Part shown: positions 4,703 through 21,624 of the stretch, in pieces | Layout: the number at the start of each line of letters is the position of its first letter | How positions within the stretch are numbered: position 1 is the stretch's first letter | Origin: a virus | DNA: 30,821 bases | IMG/VR virus record: IMGVR_UViG_3300025853_000029 | Location: 1 to 30,821 of that record | Reading direction: 5' to 3' (one strand) | The notes under the pieces: generated by a model | Told to the model about the DNA's origin: nothing | The model's input: the letters and a program-made list of their open reading frames with translations, nothing else | Database searches by the model: none | Program-made: the position numbers and the translations under genes

Positions 4703-4735
4703 AAAAAAAAAGACCGGCATTTTATTGCCGGCCTT
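4703..4735 (-). terminator. Rho-independent terminator after tail tube gene
   Basis: On the minus strand the arms GGCCGGCA and TGCCGGTC (4733-4726 and 4719-4712) enclose a six-base loop and are followed by nine T. It lies 24 bases after the tail tube stop and so separates the capsid/tail-tube transcript from the insert-portal unit. Confidence 0.85.
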
Positions 4736-8210: not shown

Positions 8211-8259
8211 CTTGTTAATAGTTGTTTGATTTTTGATCAGTCTTTTTTTTATTCTTGCG

Positions 8260-9456
8260 TTAGTCTTGTAATCTTTCGATTGCATCATACCATAGATTTG
8301 CAGAACGGCTAGTCTCACCGGAATCTTTCATAATATCATCGATTTGAGAAATTAATTTTGCCGGAGCTCCTAATTCTTTTGCTTCTTTTTTTAAAGATTC
8401 AAGCATAGCATATGCTTGACCTGCTAACTTTTCTGCTCTCTTAAAAGAGTTGATTGTAGTTTTTACTTGACTAACAGCTTTGTTGTATGTCTTTTCAGCT
8501 TGTTCATACTTTCCAAAGGCATCGTTTACTTTGTTCATTTCAACTTTTTGTGAACTGGCCTCAAGTTTTCCTAACTCCTTTAATTTAGCACTCGACCAAC
8601 GGAGACCGGCCTTGCCTCCCCATAGCAAGTAGCTAATGGTTCCGCAGGCTTCCGTATCTCCTTCTTGGTAGTATTCTTCTGCTCTCGATAAGTAGCTGTA
8701 CATTCTCTTTATGGTCTCTACTGTGATAGGTTCTTTTTGTGCTAGCTGCTGCGCTCTAATTTTTCCGACCTGCGTTGCACACTTGTTGTTTACCTTTTCA
8801 TTCAGCTCGATGCCTCGTTTCGCATTGTTGCTCACGGCATCCGGGTAGTCGCTGTAGCTCTCCAAGTTCTCTTTTTGTAGCTCCTCACGGATATATTCTA
8901 GCATCTCCTCTGCTTCTGCTTCAGGATCTACTTGTGTTCCCATATTGACCTTGTCTGCAAAGTAACCTTCGATTGAGAATCCTTTTACTTTGCCAGTGGA
9001 GACGTACTTGTCCCATACCTCGTCATTATAGACCTTCATTGATACCATCCAGGTCCCTTCAGGATGATCCATTCCATATGCACGGCTCTTATCTTGCTCT
9101 CCTTCTACGATCCAAGATTCTACAACACTCAATCCTTGTAAGTCGATTTGGTGTTCTAGGGTACTCTTGTTTTGATTGCCTTTTGTGAGGAACATTTCAC
9201 TGACCTTTCTGATCGTATCCTTGCTGAAGTAGATGTAGTATTCATCTTCTCCGTTTTTCCGGTAGATAGTTTTGTTTGGAATCAGTGCCGGTCCCATCAG
9301 GATGCGCTTCTCCGCATCCACTTGGGCTAGTTGTATTTCCTGGTCCTTACTTAATTTTACGAAGTTCTCTTCTATTGCCGGATATTCTACAATAGAGATT
9401 GCCTGCACTCCGGCTAGCATTTCTTCTTCATCTAGGATTAATTCTACGATTCTCAT
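8260..9456 (-). CDS. Prohead protease (XkdF / Peptidase_S78_2-like) with extra domains
   Basis: A 398-residue, three-part protein. Residues about 50-170 resemble the XkdF-like putative serine protease: ILMGPALIPNKTIYRK, FSKDTIRKVSEMFL, LEHQ (H102), and VKGFSIEGYF (S161); these are candidate catalytic His and Ser. Residues about 203-296 hold a domain I have seen after other phage head proteases: YPDAVSNNAKRGIELNEKV, ATQVGKIRAQQLA, CGTISYLLWGGKAGLRWS. Its function is unknown. Residues about 300-398 are a helical tail starting ASSQKVEMNKVNDAF that resembles paralogues A and B downstream; its DNA is AT-richer by eye. The start overlaps the tape-measure stop (ATGA). Confidence 0.75.
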   Translation of the reverse strand: MRIVELILDEEEMLAGVQAISIVEYPAIEENFVKLSKDQEIQLAQVDAEKRILMGPALIPNKTIYRKNGEDEYYIYFSKDTIRKVSEMFLTKGNQNKSTLEHQIDLQGLSVVESWIVEGEQDKSRAYGMDHPEGTWMVSMKVYNDEVWDKYVSTGKVKGFSIEGYFADKVNMGTQVDPEAEAEEMLEYIREELQKENLESYSDYPDAVSNNAKRGIELNEKVNNKCATQVGKIRAQQLAQKEPITVETIKRMYSYLSRAEEYYQEGDTEACGTISYLLWGGKAGLRWSSAKLKELGKLEASSQKVEMNKVNDAFGKYEQAEKTYNKAVSQVKTTINSFKRAEKLAGQAYAMLESLKKEAKELGAPAKLISQIDDIMKDSGETSRSANLWYDAIERLQD

Positions 9457-11348
9457 ATCGATGCTGTTTTTATTCTTTTTCTATCTAGTTCTTGTTGTGT
9501 TGAAACGTCTCCTCCTACTACGTATGCACGTAGTGGCTGTCTTTCCGCTTGTATACTTTGTGCAAGTTGGTTAATTCCACTCGTTCCCACAACATTAAAT
9601 TGTGGAGTGACTGGCCTTCCTCCTCCGGATCCTCCTGGAGAAGTGGTGCTTGGTGTGGATCCTCCGTTGAATTGTTGGCTCTGTATCTGTTTGAGCTTTG
9701 CAATACCAAATGCAGTTGCTAGACCGGCTTGAATAGCCGGGTACGCAGGAAGGATTGCTGTCAGTGGACTCTTTTGTGCTGTAGTATATGCGTTTTGTGC
9801 ACCTTCTATTGTACTTATCACTGTGTTGGCTGCTGATAGTGCTTTTTGCACCTGGAAGGCTCTTCTCTGTTGCTTTTCACTGTCTCCTGCAAAGGCTTCC
9901 GACAATGCACCGATAGCATCTAGGCTCATCTTGGTCAATGCTATAGCATCTGCTCTAGTTTGCTCCTGATTTGCTCGTTTCTCCTCCTCTGTCTCGTAGT
10001 CTATTCTCTTGCTTTCTGATGCGTACTCTTTTTCGAGGAGTAACCTCTCGTCTAGTAGTTCCTGGTAACGTGCAGTGCCCTCTTTTGTGAGGGCTAGCTC
10101 GTCTTCTATGATACTTACTCTTGAGTTCTTGGTTTCTTCTGCAAGTTGCTTCTCTAGCTCTAGTCTTTTGAGTACATTCTCTTCTTGATCTATCGCAGCT
10201 TGTTTCTCTATCTCATTGGCTTCTATGGACGCTTCTTGTTTGGCCCTTTGTATTTCTAGGATCTCACGTTCTAGTGCTTCTTCGTTAGATAGTTGCTCGG
10301 ACTTGAATCCTGCGATTTGAGCCTCTACTGCTACTAGCTCGTTCTGTGCATCTATGAGCTCTCGTTGAAACTCTACGTTCTTCTCATCAAGAGCTGCATT
10401 GGCTTGGGCCTGCTTTAGCCTGATGTTTGCATTGGCTAGCATTGCCTTTTCTTGTTCTTCTAATACTTTCCCAAGATCCTGGTTGGCTTTGATTCTTTCT
10501 GCAATAGAGTTCCTTTCATCGTCTCGGACCTGACGCAGTTGTTCTGCTTGCAGGTCGTACTTCTCTATCAGGCCCTGGTTAATTACATCAGCGAGCTCTG
10601 CTTGCTTATTGAGTTCCGTCATTGCAGTGGCAGCTTCAAACGTCTTCTTGGTATACTCTCCTACTGATCCTGCTACCTTCTTTGTAGTGTCTACGATCTT
10701 ATCAAGAGAACCATCTACTCCGGTGAACATATCAACAGCCTCCTTACCTGCGTTCTTCACGTCTTCTAGTGCTCCGGTAAAGTCACCACTGAATACTTTC
10801 TTCACTGCACTTGCTATGAAGCCTAGTGTATCGAGCATTGAGTTGAACCTCTCTATAAGATTATCCTTTATTGCATTTGCAAAGGATATAAGACTCTCCT
10901 TGGGGTTCTCAAAGATATCCTTGAAGAATCCAGTGATGTTACCGATGTTTCCTTCTATGAACTTTACGAAGTCGCTGAAGGCAATCTGCAGGAAGTTAAA
11001 TGCTGTGTTGAATAGGTCAACGACTCTTTGGTTGTTGTTGAATAGATCATATAGAATCTCCATTGCCTTCTCCACTAGGAAGATGATTCCGGAGGCCTTA
11101 CCTATATTTCCAAATGCTTTGGATAGCTTTCCTACTCCTTTTGCGCTATCGGATGCTGCATCTTCTATACTTTCAACACTATCCTTGGTTTCATCCATTC
11201 TCTTGTTGACATCACCAAGGCCCTTATCGAGGCCTTGGGACATATCCTGAATAGCATCCTTCAGTTCGTTGATTGCATCTACCAAGTCATTGGTAGTCTT
11301 TTCCGCATTCGATTCTACGTCTATCGTTACCGTTTCCTTAATAGCCAT
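9453..11348 (-). CDS. Tape measure protein
   Basis: A 631-residue helical protein. Residues about 1-75 are charged coiled coil. Hydrophobic stretches follow (ASGIIFLVEKAMEILYDLF and ITGFFKDIFENPKESLISFA). Residues about 240-470 form a long Glu/Lys/Gln-rich coiled coil. The end is a membrane-like Ala/Leu segment (SPLTAILPAYPAIQAGLATA) and a Gly/Ser/Pro linker. This layout fits a tail ruler protein. At about 0.15 nm per residue, the length relation known for tape measures predicts a tail near 95 nm. It overlaps a 43-codon gene upstream and the protease downstream (ATGA). Confidence 0.82.
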   Translation of the reverse strand: MAIKETVTIDVESNAEKTTNDLVDAINELKDAIQDMSQGLDKGLGDVNKRMDETKDSVESIEDAASDSAKGVGKLSKAFGNIGKASGIIFLVEKAMEILYDLFNNNQRVVDLFNTAFNFLQIAFSDFVKFIEGNIGNITGFFKDIFENPKESLISFANAIKDNLIERFNSMLDTLGFIASAVKKVFSGDFTGALEDVKNAGKEAVDMFTGVDGSLDKIVDTTKKVAGSVGEYTKKTFEAATAMTELNKQAELADVINQGLIEKYDLQAEQLRQVRDDERNSIAERIKANQDLGKVLEEQEKAMLANANIRLKQAQANAALDEKNVEFQRELIDAQNELVAVEAQIAGFKSEQLSNEEALEREILEIQRAKQEASIEANEIEKQAAIDQEENVLKRLELEKQLAEETKNSRVSIIEDELALTKEGTARYQELLDERLLLEKEYASESKRIDYETEEEKRANQEQTRADAIALTKMSLDAIGALSEAFAGDSEKQQRRAFQVQKALSAANTVISTIEGAQNAYTTAQKSPLTAILPAYPAIQAGLATAFGIAKLKQIQSQQFNGGSTPSTTSPGGSGGGRPVTPQFNVVGTSGINQLAQSIQAERQPLRAYVVGGDVSTQQELDRKRIKTASI

Positions 11349-13487: not shown

Positions 13488-14691
13488 ATCTCGTATCGAA
13501 TGCTTCTTCTACCTGGATCGTGTAGTTAATGGTTTTCTCGTTGATTGCTTTTTGCAACCTTGCCGAGCTGCTCACTACATTCACCGGCTTCGTATCTAAC
13601 ATCACTCTCTCACTTATGAGAAGTTGCTTTATTGCTTCTTTATGATCTTCAGATACCCATCCGGTGTTCAGTGTGGTCCGTACTCTTCCGTTTGTGTTGA
13701 ACTTCTTGTATTGTTCTATGTCGGTGTCGTAGGAGACACCGCTATAGGCTACCGTCAGGTTTGACTTTCTAAACTGTTCAGATGTCACCTCTAGATCATC
13801 ATCGCTTCTTTTGAAGAAGTTTAAGAATTCCCAGGTGCCATACTTATTCAGGAATCGTATTGTCTGTGTTGTGTATTTCGGCTCACACTGTTTGATTACT
13901 TTTAGTGTTGCTACTTCTGCAGCTAGGCTGTCCAGTAGCACTATTTCCCATTCATCTTGATTGATCGGTCTGTCTGATGCTGCTCCGGAGTATCCATCGC
14001 TTGTTAGATAAGAGTTGAGGCTCTTTGGTCCTACTGGCAGTCTTGTAATTTGGTTTTCAGGCTGTGCGTTGCCGTGTCTTGACGTTATGTCAAACGTGTG
14101 TTTGAGTACTCCTCCTACTTTGTATCCTACCTCATCTATGGTCTCCGAATCTTTTTCTCCTAGGTATGTAGATACCATTTCGTATCCGTCTGTTTGCACA
14201 TAGACTGTTGAGGTGCTGTTAAGATATCCGTCTGTTGCTGCTGCGTTTGCTCCGTCTTCATATTCGTGATATCCATCACTCACGGCAAAAGTTGCAGAGC
14301 TACCGGTAACATTTGTTATAACCGTTGGCGTAGATACCGAGTAGTAGTTGAGGCTGTAGTCTATATCTACCCATACAACATTCGTGTCTCTCTCTCCTAC
14401 CGGAGCTCCTCTTGTGATGCTCGTATCAAAGACTCCTCCTAGCTCTTCTCTTACCATCGGTGCAATATCAAATGCCACCTGGAATGTATCACCGGAGGTA
14501 TGTGATACAAACTTATCTCTGAATAGTGTATAGTCAGGATTGCTTGGTCTACTGCTGTAGGATCCACTCCATACAAATATTTCTATCGATACATCTACTG
14601 GAGCATCTACTGTCTCTGCTGCTTCTGCAACGGTTATATATATTGGGCTTCTTGCTCCTACTAAATCTGTCGGTGCTACTATTTGTGCCAT
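13480..14691 (-). CDS. Tail structural protein with DGY repeats
   Basis: A 403-residue, beta-rich protein. The C-terminal half carries CEPKYTTQTIRFLNKYGTWE followed by FLNFFKRSDDDLEVTSEQF (about residues 269-307), a segment I know from Bacteroidota phage virion proteins. The middle shows four (S/T)DGY units: SDGYHEY, TDGYLNS, TDGYEMV and SDGYSGA. It starts in a one-base overlap with the neck-protein stop. It is probably a tail or baseplate component acting with the next two genes. No enzyme motif is seen. Confidence 0.62.
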   Translation of the reverse strand: MAQIVAPTDLVGARSPIYITVAEAAETVDAPVDVSIEIFVWSGSYSSRPSNPDYTLFRDKFVSHTSGDTFQVAFDIAPMVREELGGVFDTSITRGAPVGERDTNVVWVDIDYSLNYYSVSTPTVITNVTGSSATFAVSDGYHEYEDGANAAATDGYLNSTSTVYVQTDGYEMVSTYLGEKDSETIDEVGYKVGGVLKHTFDITSRHGNAQPENQITRLPVGPKSLNSYLTSDGYSGAASDRPINQDEWEIVLLDSLAAEVATLKVIKQCEPKYTTQTIRFLNKYGTWEFLNFFKRSDDDLEVTSEQFRKSNLTVAYSGVSYDTDIEQYKKFNTNGRVRTTLNTGWVSEDHKEAIKQLLISERVMLDTKPVNVVSSSARLQKAINEKTINYTIQVEEAFDTRYV

Positions 14692-15218
14692 TAGAATATC
14701 TGTTTAAGTGTGTGCTTCATAAAGTCTTCTATATCGAGCTTGAAGGCTCTTCTAATCTCTACCGGCATCCTCCTGAATCCTAATGTGAATGGCCTGGTGA
14801 AGAAGTAGCTAGGTTTGATACCGTCTCTGTATATCTTGTTTTGTATTGCAAAGGCTAGGGACCGTCTCTTGATAAATCTTCCTTTCTCGTCTCTTATGCT
14901 TTTGAAGCCTCTTCTTACGATCCACTTGTCCAGTGGTCCGATTGGTGGCTTCTTGTTTTTGTAGCTGTATGGAGTATTGTATTTCTTCTTGATACCACTT
15001 ACACCTTTGTCTTGGTATTCTCCGTACTCCTCCATCTTGAAGTCAAAGCTAAAGCTGATTCCTGATTGAGACGCTCTCATATCATATCCAATGGAATCGT
15101 ACAGCTTCTTGCTCACGTTCTTCTTCTTCTTGGTCAAGTTAGCTCGTGCTTGCTGCACGACATACTTGCCAAACTTATCGAAGGTCTCCTGGAGATGTTC
15201 AGGGTTAAACGCAGGCAT
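14691..15218 (-). CDS. Neck / tail completion protein (HK97 gp10-like)
   Basis: A 175-residue basic protein. The central run of Lys and Tyr (TKKKKNVSKKLYDSIGYDMR, about residues 29-48) followed by FDFKMEEYGEYQDKGVSGIK resembles the HK97 gp10 or tail-completion family, which joins the tail to the head connector. The C-terminal half has FTRPFTLGFRRMPVEIRRAF and a final helix. Position after the 157-aa gene and before large tail proteins supports this. Assignment is by pattern and context. Confidence 0.6.
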   Translation of the reverse strand: MPAFNPEHLQETFDKFGKYVVQQARANLTKKKKNVSKKLYDSIGYDMRASQSGISFSFDFKMEEYGEYQDKGVSGIKKKYNTPYSYKNKKPPIGPLDKWIVRRGFKSIRDEKGRFIKRRSLAFAIQNKIYRDGIKPSYFFTRPFTLGFRRMPVEIRRAFKLDIEDFMKHTLKQIF

Positions 15219-15678
15219 TGATTTCGCTGTTTGGTATACTTATATTAAAGGTCACGTCCCATCCGGCTAGCATATTATCGAACCTCTCTACGAATGGTTC
15301 GGCTGTTGGTGCTCCTTCTATTTGATACTTGTCGCTGAAGATTGTACCTCTGCTCAAGCTAGTCCATAGCTCATTGGCTGCTCCGAGCATTGCGTTGTGA
15401 ACGTCCTGCTCGTTATTGTTTCCTCTGAAGAACTCTGCTGTTTCGCTTCTTGGATCGTTCTTGCTAAATTCCACGATGTCTGCAAATAGTATGCTTACGC
15501 TGAACGTTATTACGTGATCGGAGAACGTAGCGTTCTGTATGATCAGGTGAGCTAGTGGGAAGATTGTTTGCTTCGCTAGATCAACCTCTAGGAGGTCTCC
15601 AGTGGTTACGGTGTTGATTGAAGGGCTTGCAACTAATGTTGCTCGTAGCTTCTCTAGTAAGTCGTAGTATCCGGTCAT
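15205..15678 (-). CDS. Probable tail terminator / head-tail joining protein
   Basis: A 157-residue protein starting MTGYYDLLEKLRATLVASPS. A mixed alpha/beta pattern with FPLAHLIIQNATFSDHVITF and a final WDVTFNISIP fits the small alpha/beta tail-terminator type. Its ATG overlaps the stop of the -1-frame extension of the tail chaperone (ATGA at 15678-15675), not the zero-frame stop. That is independent evidence that the -1 frame is the conserved one. A role at the head-proximal tail end is inferred from gene order. Confidence 0.55.
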   Translation of the reverse strand: MTGYYDLLEKLRATLVASPSINTVTTGDLLEVDLAKQTIFPLAHLIIQNATFSDHVITFSVSILFADIVEFSKNDPRSETAEFFRGNNNEQDVHNAMLGAANELWTSLSRGTIFSDKYQIEGAPTAEPFVERFDNMLAGWDVTFNISIPNSEINACV

Positions 15679-16405
15679 TTCTTTATCATCTTCTTTTCGA
15701 GGTCTATCTTCTCTTTTTCAAATTCCAAGTACATCAGTGCTTGGTGTATGGAGATCCTAGTAATGCTCTCAAACTTTGTAACGTCTCCTTGAGCGAGTGC
15801 ATATATGCTTGTGTACCATCCCCATTTCCGTCCGAAGTTTGCTCCGATGCTGTAGTCGAACTCTCCTGATCCTTCTCCAAAGATTGCAGCATAGCTATCG
15901 ATAACTCCGTTCCTAAAGTCCAAAAAAAAACCAATGCTCCGAAGACGCAGTCCATCGTTAGGTTTTTCATTGTATCGCTATACTTGTGGCTGCTCTCATA
16001 GTCTTCTATTCGATACAGCTCTTTTGCTTCACTTACGATTGGCCGGTATAGCACGGCCATCGAATTATGCATTGTTTCCCATTCTACGATTGTCGTGTCC
16101 AGGTCCACATACTCTCCGAAGGTTATATCCTCGAGGTTCGGTATAAATCCGAACTCTTTGTTCTTGATCCTGGTCCTCTGCTTTAGTTGATATTTCTCGT
16201 CAAAGTAAGAGAATAGCTTTCTGCTGATTCTCGTTACTTCTTTGAAGGGCATACTGTTCACTACGATCAGTGGCACCTTGCAGAATATCTCTATAGCCTT
16301 CTGTGCAATAAACATCTCATCGTCACTCTTGAGTGCGAGGAAACGTTGGTATTGCTCCAGGGTTATCTCGTGTAGTCCTTCCGGGATCAGGATTTCTATC
16401 TCCAT
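15675..16405 (-). CDS. Tail assembly chaperone, -1 frameshift product (gpGT-like)
   Basis: The proposed 243-residue product is 161 zero-frame codons, a -1 slip on the T9 run, then 82 codons (LDFRNGVIDSYAAIFGEG to EKEKIDLEKKMIKK). The -1 part contains GRKWGWYTSIYALAQGDVTK and FESITRISIHQALMYLEFEK, a pattern I know from tail chaperone C-termini in Bacteroidota phages. In lambda, gpG and gpGT are made by the same -1 slip and load the tape measure protein. The -1 frame ends in an ATGA overlap with the next gene. A one-base homopolymer error in the assembly would give the same picture. Confidence 0.7.
15734..16405 (-). CDS. Tail assembly chaperone, zero-frame product (gpG-like)
   Basis: The unshifted product is 223 residues. 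Residues 1-161 are shared with the frameshift form and look like a folded domain (for example LHEITLEQYQRFLALKSDDE and FGFIPNLEDITFGEYVDLDT). After the slip site the remaining 62 residues (WTLGTELSIAMLQSLEKDQE onward) are Ser/Thr/Gln-rich and overlap the conserved -1 frame. They may be simple by-product sequence. The start lies in the CAGTTACTTATATATG leader 36 bases after the large terminase gene. Confidence 0.6.
   Translation of the reverse strand: MEIEILIPEGLHEITLEQYQRFLALKSDDEMFIAQKAIEIFCKVPLIVVNSMPFKEVTRISRKLFSYFDEKYQLKQRTRIKNKEFGFIPNLEDITFGEYVDLDTTIVEWETMHNSMAVLYRPIVSEAKELYRIEDYESSHKYSDTMKNLTMDCVFGALVFFWTLGTELSIAMLQSLEKDQESSTTASEQTSDGNGDGTQAYMHSLKETLQSLRALLGSPYTKH
15922..15930 (-). other. 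Candidate -1 ribosomal slip site (T9)
   Basis: On the minus strand the zero frame reads TTG GTT TTT TTT TGG, which contains the heptamer T TTT TTT in the X XXY YYZ register. Slipping back one base keeps both tRNAs perfectly paired and continues TTG GAC TTT AGG into the conserved frame. The site falls at codons 160-161 of the chaperone gene. Confidence 0.7.
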
Positions 16406-16441: not shown

Positions 16442-17599
16442 TTATCTAACTGCATAGCGACCATAATTCGGTCTGCTCATTCTGTTGTATGTCGCATACC
16501 TCATCGCATCTATGGCGTGGTTGTATTTGTCGATAGGTTTGTTTAGGATCTTGCCGTTATGATCCTCTATCCATTTATAGTTACGCATCTCTTTGATCAG
16601 GTTCAGGCTTGACTTGGTGATGTATAGCTTATGTCTTTTGAGCATATCGATTCCTGCCATTACACTGTCCGGTCCTTTTGCTGTTGGTTTGATGTTCCAT
16701 CCGAAGAGCTGTAGTTCCTTGATGCTCTTCGGCTCTGCACTATCTGCAAATATCTCTGCTCTTTTATCTATGTTTAGTCCCTGGAGTGAATGGTGAATGT
16801 CTCTGTTGGTCATTCCGGTTTGGTAGATCTTCTCATCGAAGTATAGGTCTCCTTTGTATTCGTATGCTATCACAAGGGTTGTTGGATCATTAGTGAATCC
16901 GAAGTCCATTCCTGCTGCTACTTGTCTTGCTCCTTCAGGTACCTGGTCCGACTCGTGGTATTGGAAGATGAGTGCTTTGCTTGCTCCTCTTTCTCCTAGT
17001 CCATACACTTGCCAGTATTGCTCGTCTGTTTCCTTCAGTCTTTCTATCTCGTCTATGATCGTCTGTGGGAGGAATGGATTGTCTAGGTATGTTGTTTTGT
17101 GAAACTCTGCATCGTCTCTTGGTATCACCTTATCGTATATCCAGTGGTATTCATCACTAGGGTTGTAGTCAATCACGATCCTGCCATTGGTCCGGAGGAC
17201 GAGCTGCTGCCAATCTTCGTAGTGCAGCTCATTGGCCTCATTGATATACAGCAGGTCTCTTTTGCGACCTCTCACTTTCTGTGGTTGGTCCAGGGATATA
17301 AATTCTACCATATTGCTCCCTAGCATATATTCGTGGGAGCTCTTGTTATGGTGTGCAGGATTGTAGTGGCCTACCTTCTCTAGGATTTCAAAGAAGTCTC
17401 TCATCACTGATGATCTTACTGCAGGGAATGTCTTCCTGCAGATTGTGATTGTTTCTCCTTTAGCTACCGATAGGCAATAGTATATCAGCCATATCAGGAT
17501 GTTGTATGTCTTCCCTGATCTAGTTCCTCCTTGCTCAATGATTATCTTCTTCTGTGCTTGGAGTAGATGTCTGAATACTACATTAGTCTTTAGTTCCAT
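16442..17599 (-). CDS. terL: Terminase large subunit
   Basis: A 385-residue packaging motor with both activities visible. The ATPase half has Walker A GGTRSGKT (residues 24-31) and Walker B LLYINE (116-121, catalytic Glu121). The nuclease half has the three acidic positions of the RNase H-like fold: MDFGFTND (Asp232), FADSAEP (Asp286) and NHAIDAMRY (Asp364). The length and motifs fit the PBSX/Terminase_3 type. It should cut concatemeric DNA and pump it through the portal at 2464-4326. It overlaps the small terminase gene by 17 bases. Confidence 0.95.
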   Translation of the reverse strand: MELKTNVVFRHLLQAQKKIIIEQGGTRSGKTYNILIWLIYYCLSVAKGETITICRKTFPAVRSSVMRDFFEILEKVGHYNPAHHNKSSHEYMLGSNMVEFISLDQPQKVRGRKRDLLYINEANELHYEDWQQLVLRTNGRIVIDYNPSDEYHWIYDKVIPRDDAEFHKTTYLDNPFLPQTIIDEIERLKETDEQYWQVYGLGERGASKALIFQYHESDQVPEGARQVAAGMDFGFTNDPTTLVIAYEYKGDLYFDEKIYQTGMTNRDIHHSLQGLNIDKRAEIFADSAEPKSIKELQLFGWNIKPTAKGPDSVMAGIDMLKRHKLYITKSSLNLIKEMRNYKWIEDHNGKILNKPIDKYNHAIDAMRYATYNRMSRPNYGRYAVR

Positions 17600-18037: not shown

Positions 18038-19303
18038 TTATACCTCCTCTCCGTTTATTTTAATTATTATGTGTTCGTCTAGTTGCTGCATCCGGTCAAT
18101 GATTACTTGACAGTATTTCGGATCTAATTCTATTCCGTAGCACTTTCTTCCTAGTTGGTGGCAGGCTACCATTGTGCTTCCTGATCCGCAGAATGGATCT
18201 CCTACGATCTCTCCAGGTTTTGAGCTGTTCTTTATCAGGTCACCTACTAGTGGTATAGGTTTCATTGTTGGATGCACATCGTTCTTTGTAGGTTTATCGT
18301 GGTGTATGATCGTGCTAGGTTGCTCGTTTACGCTCTCGAGGAGCTTCACGAGCTCGTCTTTCTTCATCTTACTGAAGTCTACCTCTTGTTCTATAACTGT
18401 TGGGTTTGTTCTGTCGTTGGTGAAGTAGTGTCCTGCACCTTCTTTCCATCCGTATAAGATAGGCTCGTGTTTCCACTGGTAGTCTTGTCTTCCTAGTACG
18501 ATGCTGTTCTTTACCCATATCAGGCATTGCTTGAGTAGCAATCCGCTTCTTTGCCATCCTAACCTAAATGCGTTGCTTGCACTATCAGCGTGGAAGACAT
18601 ACCATCCTCCTCCTTTCTTTGTCTTGTGTGCATTAGCATCGTAGAAGCCTTGGAGGAATTGCATAAAGTCCTCGTCACCCATTTTATCGTTTTGAATCTT
18701 GAGGCCGTTGCTGCCTTCGTAGTCTACATTGTATGGTGGATCCGTGAGCACTAGGTCGTAGTATTCTTCTCCGGTTAGTCTTTCTATCACATCGTAGCTT
18801 GTGCTGTCATCGCATATAAGTCTGTGGAGCTCTTCTCCTGCTTTATGGAAGGTTATCAGGTCTCCTTGCTTTACATACAGCTTTGTTTGTTCTGAAGGCT
18901 CGTAGTTATCGTCTGTGGCTTCTTCTTCATCTAGTTGTGCCCAGTCTTCAGGGAAGTCCATTCCCCATTCAAGAAGATCCTGGGTATCGTATTCGTTTGC
19001 TAGCGCATCCCAATCCCATTCACCGAATGAGCTATTGTCTTTTATGATAAATTCCTTCTGCTGCTCTTCTGTGAGATTGCTTGCTTTGATGATTGGTACC
19101 TCCGATAGTCCTGCTTCGATGCAGGCCCGGAGGCGCATATTGCCTCCGAGGACTACCATATCGTCATTGACCACTATTGGCCGTAGGTCTAGCATCTCCG
19201 GAAACTCTTTGATGCTTTTTACTAGCTTGTCAAACTTATGGCCCTTGATTGTTCTAGGGTTGTTCGGGTTTGGCTGTACGTTGATGATCTTTACTCTCTC
19301 CAT
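18038..19303 (-). CDS. ParB-domain / DNA methyltransferase fusion
   Basis: A 421-residue protein. Residues about 1-90 are a ParB/Srx-type domain (INVQPNPNNPRTI, then VVLGGNMRLRACIEAG at 50-65). The rest is an amino-methyltransferase with DPPY at 188-191, HPTMKP at 344-349, and the SAM-binding motif DPFCGSGST (369-377). The order DPPY before FCGSGS indicates a beta-class N6-adenine or N4-cytosine enzyme. This fusion is common in phages and probably modifies phage DNA against host restriction. It begins in a TAATG overlap with the nuclease gene upstream. A double hairpin follows the stop. Confidence 0.9.
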   Translation of the reverse strand: MERVKIINVQPNPNNPRTIKGHKFDKLVKSIKEFPEMLDLRPIVVNDDMVVLGGNMRLRACIEAGLSEVPIIKASNLTEEQQKEFIIKDNSSFGEWDWDALANEYDTQDLLEWGMDFPEDWAQLDEEEATDDNYEPSEQTKLYVKQGDLITFHKAGEELHRLICDDSTSYDVIERLTGEEYYDLVLTDPPYNVDYEGSNGLKIQNDKMGDEDFMQFLQGFYDANAHKTKKGGGWYVFHADSASNAFRLGWQRSGLLLKQCLIWVKNSIVLGRQDYQWKHEPILYGWKEGAGHYFTNDRTNPTVIEQEVDFSKMKKDELVKLLESVNEQPSTIIHHDKPTKNDVHPTMKPIPLVGDLIKNSSKPGEIVGDPFCGSGSTMVACHQLGRKCYGIELDPKYCQVIIDRMQQLDEHIIIKINGEEV

Positions 19304-21562: not shown

Positions 21563-21593
21563 CCAATATACTCTTTTTGTACATCGCTGCAAA
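21563..21593 (-). promoter_or_regulatory. Bacteroidota-type promoter for the sigma-like gene
   Basis: On the minus strand TTTG (21593-21590), exactly 19 bases, then TATATTGG (21570-21563), one mismatch from TAnnTTTG. It starts within the T tract of the preceding terminator, so termination and re-initiation share sequence. The leader to the ATG at 21525 is about 30 bases. Confidence 0.65.
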
Positions 21594-21624
21594 AAAAAAA
21601 TGCAGCCATTTTCATAGCTGCACT
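21591..21624 (-). terminator. Rho-independent terminator
   Basis: On the minus strand AGTGCAGC and GCTGCATT pair (8 bp, one G-U) around a loop TATGAAAATG and are followed by a run of T (ten in all, 21600-21591). The hairpin overlaps the last codons and stop of the 91-aa coiled-coil gene. Confidence 0.85.

What the first reader, a model, noticed from the sequence alone, without database searches (positions are those of the whole stretch)
15675..16405. Tail chaperone with canonical -1 slip site T TTT TTT
Seen: T9 in the register GTT TTT TTT TGG; shifting -1 opens 82 codons that contain the recognisable WGWY...LAQGD chaperone C-terminus and end in an ATGA overlap with the next gene. The zero frame instead gives 62 low-complexity residues. 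Known: lambda gpG/gpGT and many siphophages use this -1 shift. The alternative, a one-base error in a homopolymer, cannot be excluded.
Basis: partly seen in the sequence, partly recalled or inferred. Interest (0 to 1): 0.6.

Follow-up and report, generated by a model that had tools for sequence, protein, structure and literature searches.

The report
Conserved T-run frameshift in phage gene
A tail-module gene in a large family of phages of marine flavobacteria makes two proteins with the same front and different ends by slipping on a run of nine or more T's; the slip is real and conserved rather than a sequencing error, and the pattern raises the possibility that RNA polymerase, not only the ribosome, does the slipping.

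Summary
On the minus strand, ATG 16405 runs in frame to the stop at 15734 (223 aa). T9 (15930-15922) lies in the register GTT TTT TTT TGG, and a -1 shift opens 82 codons ending in an ATGA overlap (243 aa). It is not an error: 417 of 419 homologues with readable frames, and four cultured sources (two phages, two host genomes), keep the same arrangement. Two outliers look like one-base homopolymer indels.

(1) The 62-codon zero-frame extension is conserved in most of the family (at least 50 codons in 223 of 268 dereplicated homologues). Synonymous change in the -1 frame is lower where the two frames overlap, so both C-termini appear to be under selection. In known tail-chaperone frameshifts the zero-frame stop lies only about 26-36 nt past the slip. 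(2) The T run itself is preserved at 9 or more whichever register it is in (266 of 268), although a ribosomal heptamer needs 7. T_TTT_TTC is never used, and no stimulatory RNA structure was found. This is what transcriptional slippage would look like, alone or together with ribosomal slippage; sequence cannot decide.

The chaperone role is probable from position and architecture. No chaperone family matched.

The parts
15923..16405 (-). Shared N-terminal 161 codons of both products (zero frame, up to the slip)
   Evidence: Aligned in 24 diverse members down to 24% identity; matches PHROG 32199, unknown function
15922..15930 (-). Slip site: T9 in register G TT|TTT|TTT|T GG, containing the heptamer T_TTT_TTT
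   Evidence: Sequence; T run with this heptamer in register in 417/419 homologues, 9 or more T's in 415 of them
15734..15922 (-). Zero-frame C-terminal extension (62 codons plus stop), overlapping the -1 frame
   Evidence: Extension of 50 codons or more in 223/268 dereplicated homologues; reduced synonymous change in the overlap
15675..15923 (-). -1 frame C-terminal domain (82 codons plus TGA), NFGRKWGWY motif
   Evidence: Conserved from the codon at the slip onward in 24 diverse members; 16 of 25 members match PHROG 38404, unknown function
15675..15678 (-). ATGA overlap between the -1 stop and the start of the next gene
   Evidence: Sequence; also ATGA in many homologues
15205..15678 (-). Next gene, 157 aa, nearly always adjacent
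   Evidence: Homologue downstream in 248 of 250 homologues with enough flank, median distance 4 nt; PHROG 30964, unknown function
14691..15218 (-). Second gene downstream, 175 aa
   Evidence: Homologue downstream in 210 of 230 eligible loci; PHROG 29822, unknown function
16442..17599 (-). Terminase large subunit, directly upstream
   Evidence: Pfam Terminase_3 and Terminase_3C; homologue upstream in 188 of 202 eligible loci
9453..11348 (-). Tape-measure-like protein, with four genes between it and this gene
   Evidence: PHROG 1538, tail length tape measure protein, E 1.2e-13

Best explanation
The gene is a programmed -1 recoding gene of a tail module, probably a tail assembly chaperone. Decoding without a slip gives isoform A (223 aa). 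A slip on the T9 run, equivalent to reading one extra U, gives isoform B (243 aa), which has the same N-terminal 161 residues and the WGWY C-terminal domain. Shown here: the frame transition and the T run are conserved in hundreds of relatives and in cultured isolates, both C-termini appear to be under selection, and no alternative single-frame version was found. Inferred: both isoforms are made at a fixed ratio and work like gpG and gpGT, with the N-terminal part on the tape measure and the -1 domain recruiting tail tube subunits. The slip occurs on the T run. I judge it slightly more likely than not (about 0.55) that RNA-polymerase slippage contributes, because run length is preserved beyond what a ribosomal heptamer requires; ribosomal slippage alone remains nearly as likely.
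For: Same -1 relation in 417/419 homologues, run lengths 8-12. N-terminal-only and C-terminal-only queries, which do not select for the run, both give T9 throughout. Cultured sources: Nonlabens phages P12024L and P12024S, only about 24% identical, with T9 in the same register; Flagellimonas onchidii and Galbibacter pacificus genomes. Window allele 100% identical in protein in two other metagenome contigs. Synonymous change in the -1 frame 0.132 in the overlap against 0.225 in the non-overlapping tail and 0.296 in the N-terminal part; overlap minus tail -0.093, 95% CI -0.117 to -0.069; in the short-extension group the drop is mainly in the first 10 codons. Register compensation: when the 5' flanking T is lost the 3' side has two or more, never the opposite, over 6 supported independent pairs, median p 0.06. 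Last heptamer base never C in 100 representatives chosen without regard to the run, although T_TTT_TTC is synonymous in both frames with expected frequency about 16% and is an efficient E. coli frameshift motif (PMC4066793). Programmed transcriptional slippage is documented for T runs longer than 8 (PMC3711429). Tail-module synteny with TerL and downstream genes.
Against: No protein, mRNA or reporter data. No match to any chaperone family or solved structure. The gene is not next to the tape measure gene, unlike the usual chaperone position. Two natural T8 members (L273, L275) show that 9 is not absolute. Part of the T9 conservation follows from amino-acid constraint on the flanking codons. 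The compensation test has few independent events. All tail chaperones characterised so far that I know of use ribosomal slippage. The short-extension control for the synonymous-change test rests on only 14 pairs.
Confidence: 0.75

Rival explanations
1. Purely ribosomal -1 frameshifting on T_TTT_TTT, as in other tail chaperone genes; the extra T's are there only because of amino-acid constraint or because flanking T's tune ribosomal slippage.
For: The heptamer is in register in 417/417 of the -1-related homologues, including both natural T8 members. U_UUU_UUU is among the efficient E. coli motifs (PMC4066793). The tail chaperone precedent is ribosomal (PMC5009743).
Against: Any T9 run contains an in-register heptamer, so the 417/417 is nearly automatic. 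Run length is compensated across registers, no T7 was found in a search of all IMG/VR that covers most T7 contexts, T_TTT_TTC is never used, and no stimulatory hairpin or Shine-Dalgarno-like element is enriched.
Confidence: 0.45
2. The single-frame reading is the true gene and T9 is a sequencing or assembly error, or a frameshift mutation in this contig.
For: Homopolymers are error-prone; two homologues (L279, L395) do look like one-base indels.
Against: Identical frame relation in more than 400 homologues from many assemblies, two cultured phages and two host genomes.
Confidence: 0.01
3. Two separate genes: the -1 ORF is started on its own or by translational coupling, with no fusion protein, as the P12024L annotation suggests.
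For: P12024L and P12024S are annotated as two hypothetical genes; PHROGs split the halves into 32199 and 38404.
Against: Conservation of the -1 frame begins at the T run (invariant F three codons in) with no conserved start codon; the run and its register would have no reason to be conserved.
Confidence: 0.04
4. The gene is a recoded tail or neck protein other than a chaperone, for example a structural connector with two C-terminal forms.
For: No chaperone family hit; position directly after TerL and four genes before the tape measure; the two products are of nearly equal length, unlike gpG and gpGT.
Against: Two-product architecture in the tail module and weak fold similarity to two annotated tail assembly chaperones (prob 0.77 and 0.91, E 0.15 and 0.78).
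Confidence: 0.25

Closest known systems
Phage lambda gpG/gpGT and related tail assembly chaperones
   Same: Two overlapping ORFs in the tail module joined by a -1 frame transition; shared N-terminal part, second C-terminal domain in the -1 frame; gene upstream of the tape measure
   Different: T run instead of G_GGA_AAG (own knowledge); zero frame continues about 56 codons (median) past the slip, against averages of 26 nt (SEA-PHAGES) and 36 nt (Xu set) in known tail chaperones (PMC10885494); no sequence relationship found; located right after TerL
Shigella flexneri mxiE and other genes using programmed transcriptional slippage on A or T runs
   Same: Two ORFs joined by one non-templated nucleotide at a run of U's; documented for T runs longer than 8 (PMC1088944; PMC3711429)
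   Different: Phage tail-module gene; the run also contains an in-register ribosomal heptamer in every case; mRNA heterogeneity not tested
Nonlabens (Persicivirga) phages P12024L gp40/gp41 and P12024S homologues
   Same: Homologous gene pair with the same T9 register directly after TerL
   Different: Zero-frame extension only 25 codons; annotated as two separate hypothetical proteins

Membership tests
Tail assembly chaperone with programmed frameshift (gpG/gpGT type) | Two overlapping ORFs joined by a conserved frameshift, giving an unshifted and a frameshifted product with a shared N-terminus | tested here: met
   417/419 homologues; both half-gene queries agree. This is sequence evidence; the products themselves were not observed
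Tail assembly chaperone with programmed frameshift (gpG/gpGT type) | Gene lies between the major tail protein gene and the tape measure gene | tested here: inconclusive
   Upstream of a tape-measure-like gene but separated by four genes and directly after TerL; major tail protein not identified with certainty
Tail assembly chaperone with programmed frameshift (gpG/gpGT type) | Sequence or fold relationship to a known chaperone family | tested here: inconclusive
   No hit in Pfam, NCBIfam, PHROGs or PDB sequences; only weak Foldseek matches to two annotated chaperones
Tail assembly chaperone with programmed frameshift (gpG/gpGT type) | Binds tape measure and tail tube proteins, needed for tail assembly, absent from virions | not testable with these tools
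   Needs experiments
Programmed -1 ribosomal frameshifting | X_XXY_YYZ heptamer in the zero-frame register | tested here: met
   T_TTT_TTT in 417/417, though any T9 run meets this automatically
Programmed -1 ribosomal frameshifting | Stimulatory element (downstream structure or upstream SD-like sequence), common but not obligatory | tested here: not met
   Folding z-scores near 0 upstream and downstream; SD-like motif 12% against 9% in control windows. Pseudoknots were not tested
Programmed transcriptional slippage | Homopolymer of at least 9 T's conserved as a run | tested here: met
   415/417 homologues with 9 or more; length kept across registers; two natural T8 exceptions
Programmed transcriptional slippage | Heterogeneous mRNA with inserted or deleted U's at the run | not testable with these tools
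   No transcript data available

The most novel reading that the evidence does not exclude
The ratio of two tail-assembly proteins in this widespread phage family is set by RNA-polymerase slippage on a T run of 9 or more, rather than by the ribosome alone, and the two products carry alternative, mutually overlapping (dual-coded) C-terminal domains of similar length.
Probability: 0.4. Interest if true: 0.7.

Novelty: new variant of a known kind. Interest (0 to 1): 0.5.

Why it matters
Programmed frameshifting in tail genes is a textbook ribosomal case. This family offers hundreds of natural variants of one slip site, with registers and run lengths that differ, so ribosomal and transcriptional slippage can be separated directly. 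It also shows a long overlap in which two C-termini seem to be selected at once, and it corrects annotation: in cultured phages and in PHROGs the two halves are listed as separate hypothetical proteins.

Tried and rejected
Sequencing error: rejected by conservation. Strict T9 conservation: proposed after the first 260 loci, then weakened when wider scans found T8, T10, T11 and T12 members; the surviving statement is 'nine or more, whichever register'. Stimulatory RNA structure: folding of regions up to 45 nt upstream and 40-90 nt downstream gave mean z between -0.24 and 0.14, no better than control windows. Shine-Dalgarno-like element: not enriched. Solved-structure relatives: none by profile or Foldseek (best E 1.5); the middling VIA-align matches cover only the helical zero-frame tail and look like generic helical hairpins; for the C-terminal model Foldseek offered no chain. 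Pfam and NCBIfam gave nothing meaningful. Flavobacterium phage 6H gp10 (one search match R9VW65, assigned to gp10 by its length) was inspected: its frames are interrupted without a T9 run, so it was not used as evidence. Prophage search in the family and phylum of Flagellimonas: only 3 genomes with a match among about 790.

Full report
What is there. The window is an IMG/VR virus record of 30,821 bases whose main genes lie on the minus strand. The reported feature is exact: ATG at 16405, zero frame of 223 residues to the stop at 15734, T9 at 15930-15922 in the codon register GTT TTT TTT TGG, and after a -1 shift 82 further codons to a TGA at 15675 that overlaps the ATG of the next gene. It is the only A or T run of 8 or more inside a called gene in the window.

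It is not an error. The fused protein found 80 loci (of 270 relatives) in IMG/VR, down to about 40% identity, every one with a coding length of 3n-1 and a T run in the same register. To avoid circularity the two halves were then used alone. The N-terminal half gave 80 viral loci and 7 genome loci, the C-terminal half 80 loci; all carry T9 at the junction. Cultured sources agree: Nonlabens phages P12024L and P12024S, only about 24% identical, have CTT TTT TTT TAT CAT TTA, and the Flagellimonas onchidii and Galbibacter pacificus genomes carry T9 too. In a census anchored on the WGWY motif, 417 of 419 homologues have the -1 relation with the heptamer T_TTT_TTT in register; the two others (L279, L395) look like single-T indels.

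Run length. Run lengths are 8 (2 cases), 9 (306), 10 (101), 11 (6) and 12 (2); these counts mix unbiased queries with scans that asked for given lengths, so the proportions are not population frequencies. The T7 scan missed a minority of possible 5' contexts. The T's are not always in the same place: some clades have none 5' of the heptamer and two to four 3' of it (GGT TTT TTT TTG), others two 5' and none or one 3'. The total is 9 or more in 266 of 268 dereplicated members. On a tree built without the slip columns the 5' count changes at least 22 times; in independent pairs, loss of the 5' T goes with extra 3' T's and never the other way, but with only 6 supported pairs the median p is 0.06.

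In 100 representatives chosen without regard to the run, the last heptamer base is never C, although TTC/CTR is synonymous in both frames and expected at about 16% from codon usage; a control Phe codon elsewhere shows T and C with 22 changes on the tree. U_UUU_UUC is an efficient bacterial frameshift motif (PMC4066793), so a purely ribosomal site should tolerate it. T runs longer than 8 are a documented substrate of programmed transcriptional slippage in bacteria (PMC3711429; PMC1088944). E. coli RNA polymerase has been reported to need at least 7 T's (PMC6260861), so the T8 members do not exclude it.

Against this: any T9 run contains the heptamer, flanking T's are partly fixed by amino-acid constraint (V/L/I codons 5', Leu codon 3'), and the chaperone precedent is ribosomal. 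No stimulatory RNA element was found for either mechanism. I therefore leave the level of the slip open, leaning slightly to a polymerase contribution.

Both C-termini matter. In known tail-chaperone frameshifts the zero-frame stop lies on average 26 nt (SEA-PHAGES) or 36 nt (Xu set) past the slip (PMC10885494). Here the extension has a median of 56 codons and is at least 50 codons in 223 of 268 members; 44 members, including the P12024 group, have fewer than 45. Codon-randomised versions of the -1 frame leave the zero frame open for 50 codons with a median probability of 0.044 over 23 representatives. In independent close pairs, synonymous change in the -1 frame is 0.132 in the overlap, 0.225 in the tail beyond it and 0.296 in the N-terminal part. 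The reduction spans the overlap in the long-extension group (difference from the tail -0.093, CI -0.117 to -0.069) and is mainly in the first ten codons in the short-extension group, where only 14 pairs were available. This is what selection on the zero-frame tail predicts.

Function. The gene keeps the same neighbours: TerL upstream in 188 of 202 eligible loci, the 157-aa gene downstream in 248 of 250, the 175-aa gene in 210 of 230, with a tape-measure-like gene about 4 kb on in the window. The zero-frame model (pLDDT 83, pTM 0.75) matches uncharacterised phage proteins strongly and two annotated tail assembly chaperones only weakly; the C-terminal domain model is helical with moderate confidence. 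No family or solved structure names the function. A tail assembly chaperone is the likeliest role by position and architecture, not by homology.

Verdict. It is a new variant of a known kind: a recoded tail-module gene with a long dual-coded overlap and an unusually length-constrained T run.

Noticed in passing
L082 6001-6695 (JQ823123.1 23946-24640) and L083 2001-2695: P12024L gp40/gp41 and the P12024S equivalents are annotated as separate hypothetical proteins although they are the two halves of this recoded gene; PHROGs 32199 and 38404 are likewise the two halves.
   Followed up: yes
L279 and L395: Single-T indels at the slip run relative to their relatives (T8 for T9, T9 for T10) that break the normal frame relation: homopolymer errors or variants in about 0.5% of homologues.
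   Followed up: partly
L509: One T10 member has a zero-frame stop only 7 codons after the slip, unlike similar members with about 57.
   Followed up: no
L520 10048-10927 (Flavobacterium phage 6H gp10): Probable structural relative in the tail module of a cultured phage whose reading frame is interrupted without a T9 run; it could use another recoding site or contain sequence errors.
   Followed up: partly
L182: A homologue sits on a contig binned as an Epsilonproteobacteria MAG, while the other named hosts are Bacteroidetes, mostly flavobacteria; possibly a mis-binned phage contig.
   Followed up: no
window 18038-19303: A 421-aa ORF reads like a ParB-type N-terminal domain fused to a DNA methyltransferase (judged from its sequence by eye, not searched).
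   Followed up: no
window 4703-4711, 8243-8250, 21591-21600: The other A/T runs of 8 or more are all intergenic, consistent with avoidance of such runs inside genes.
   Followed up: yes
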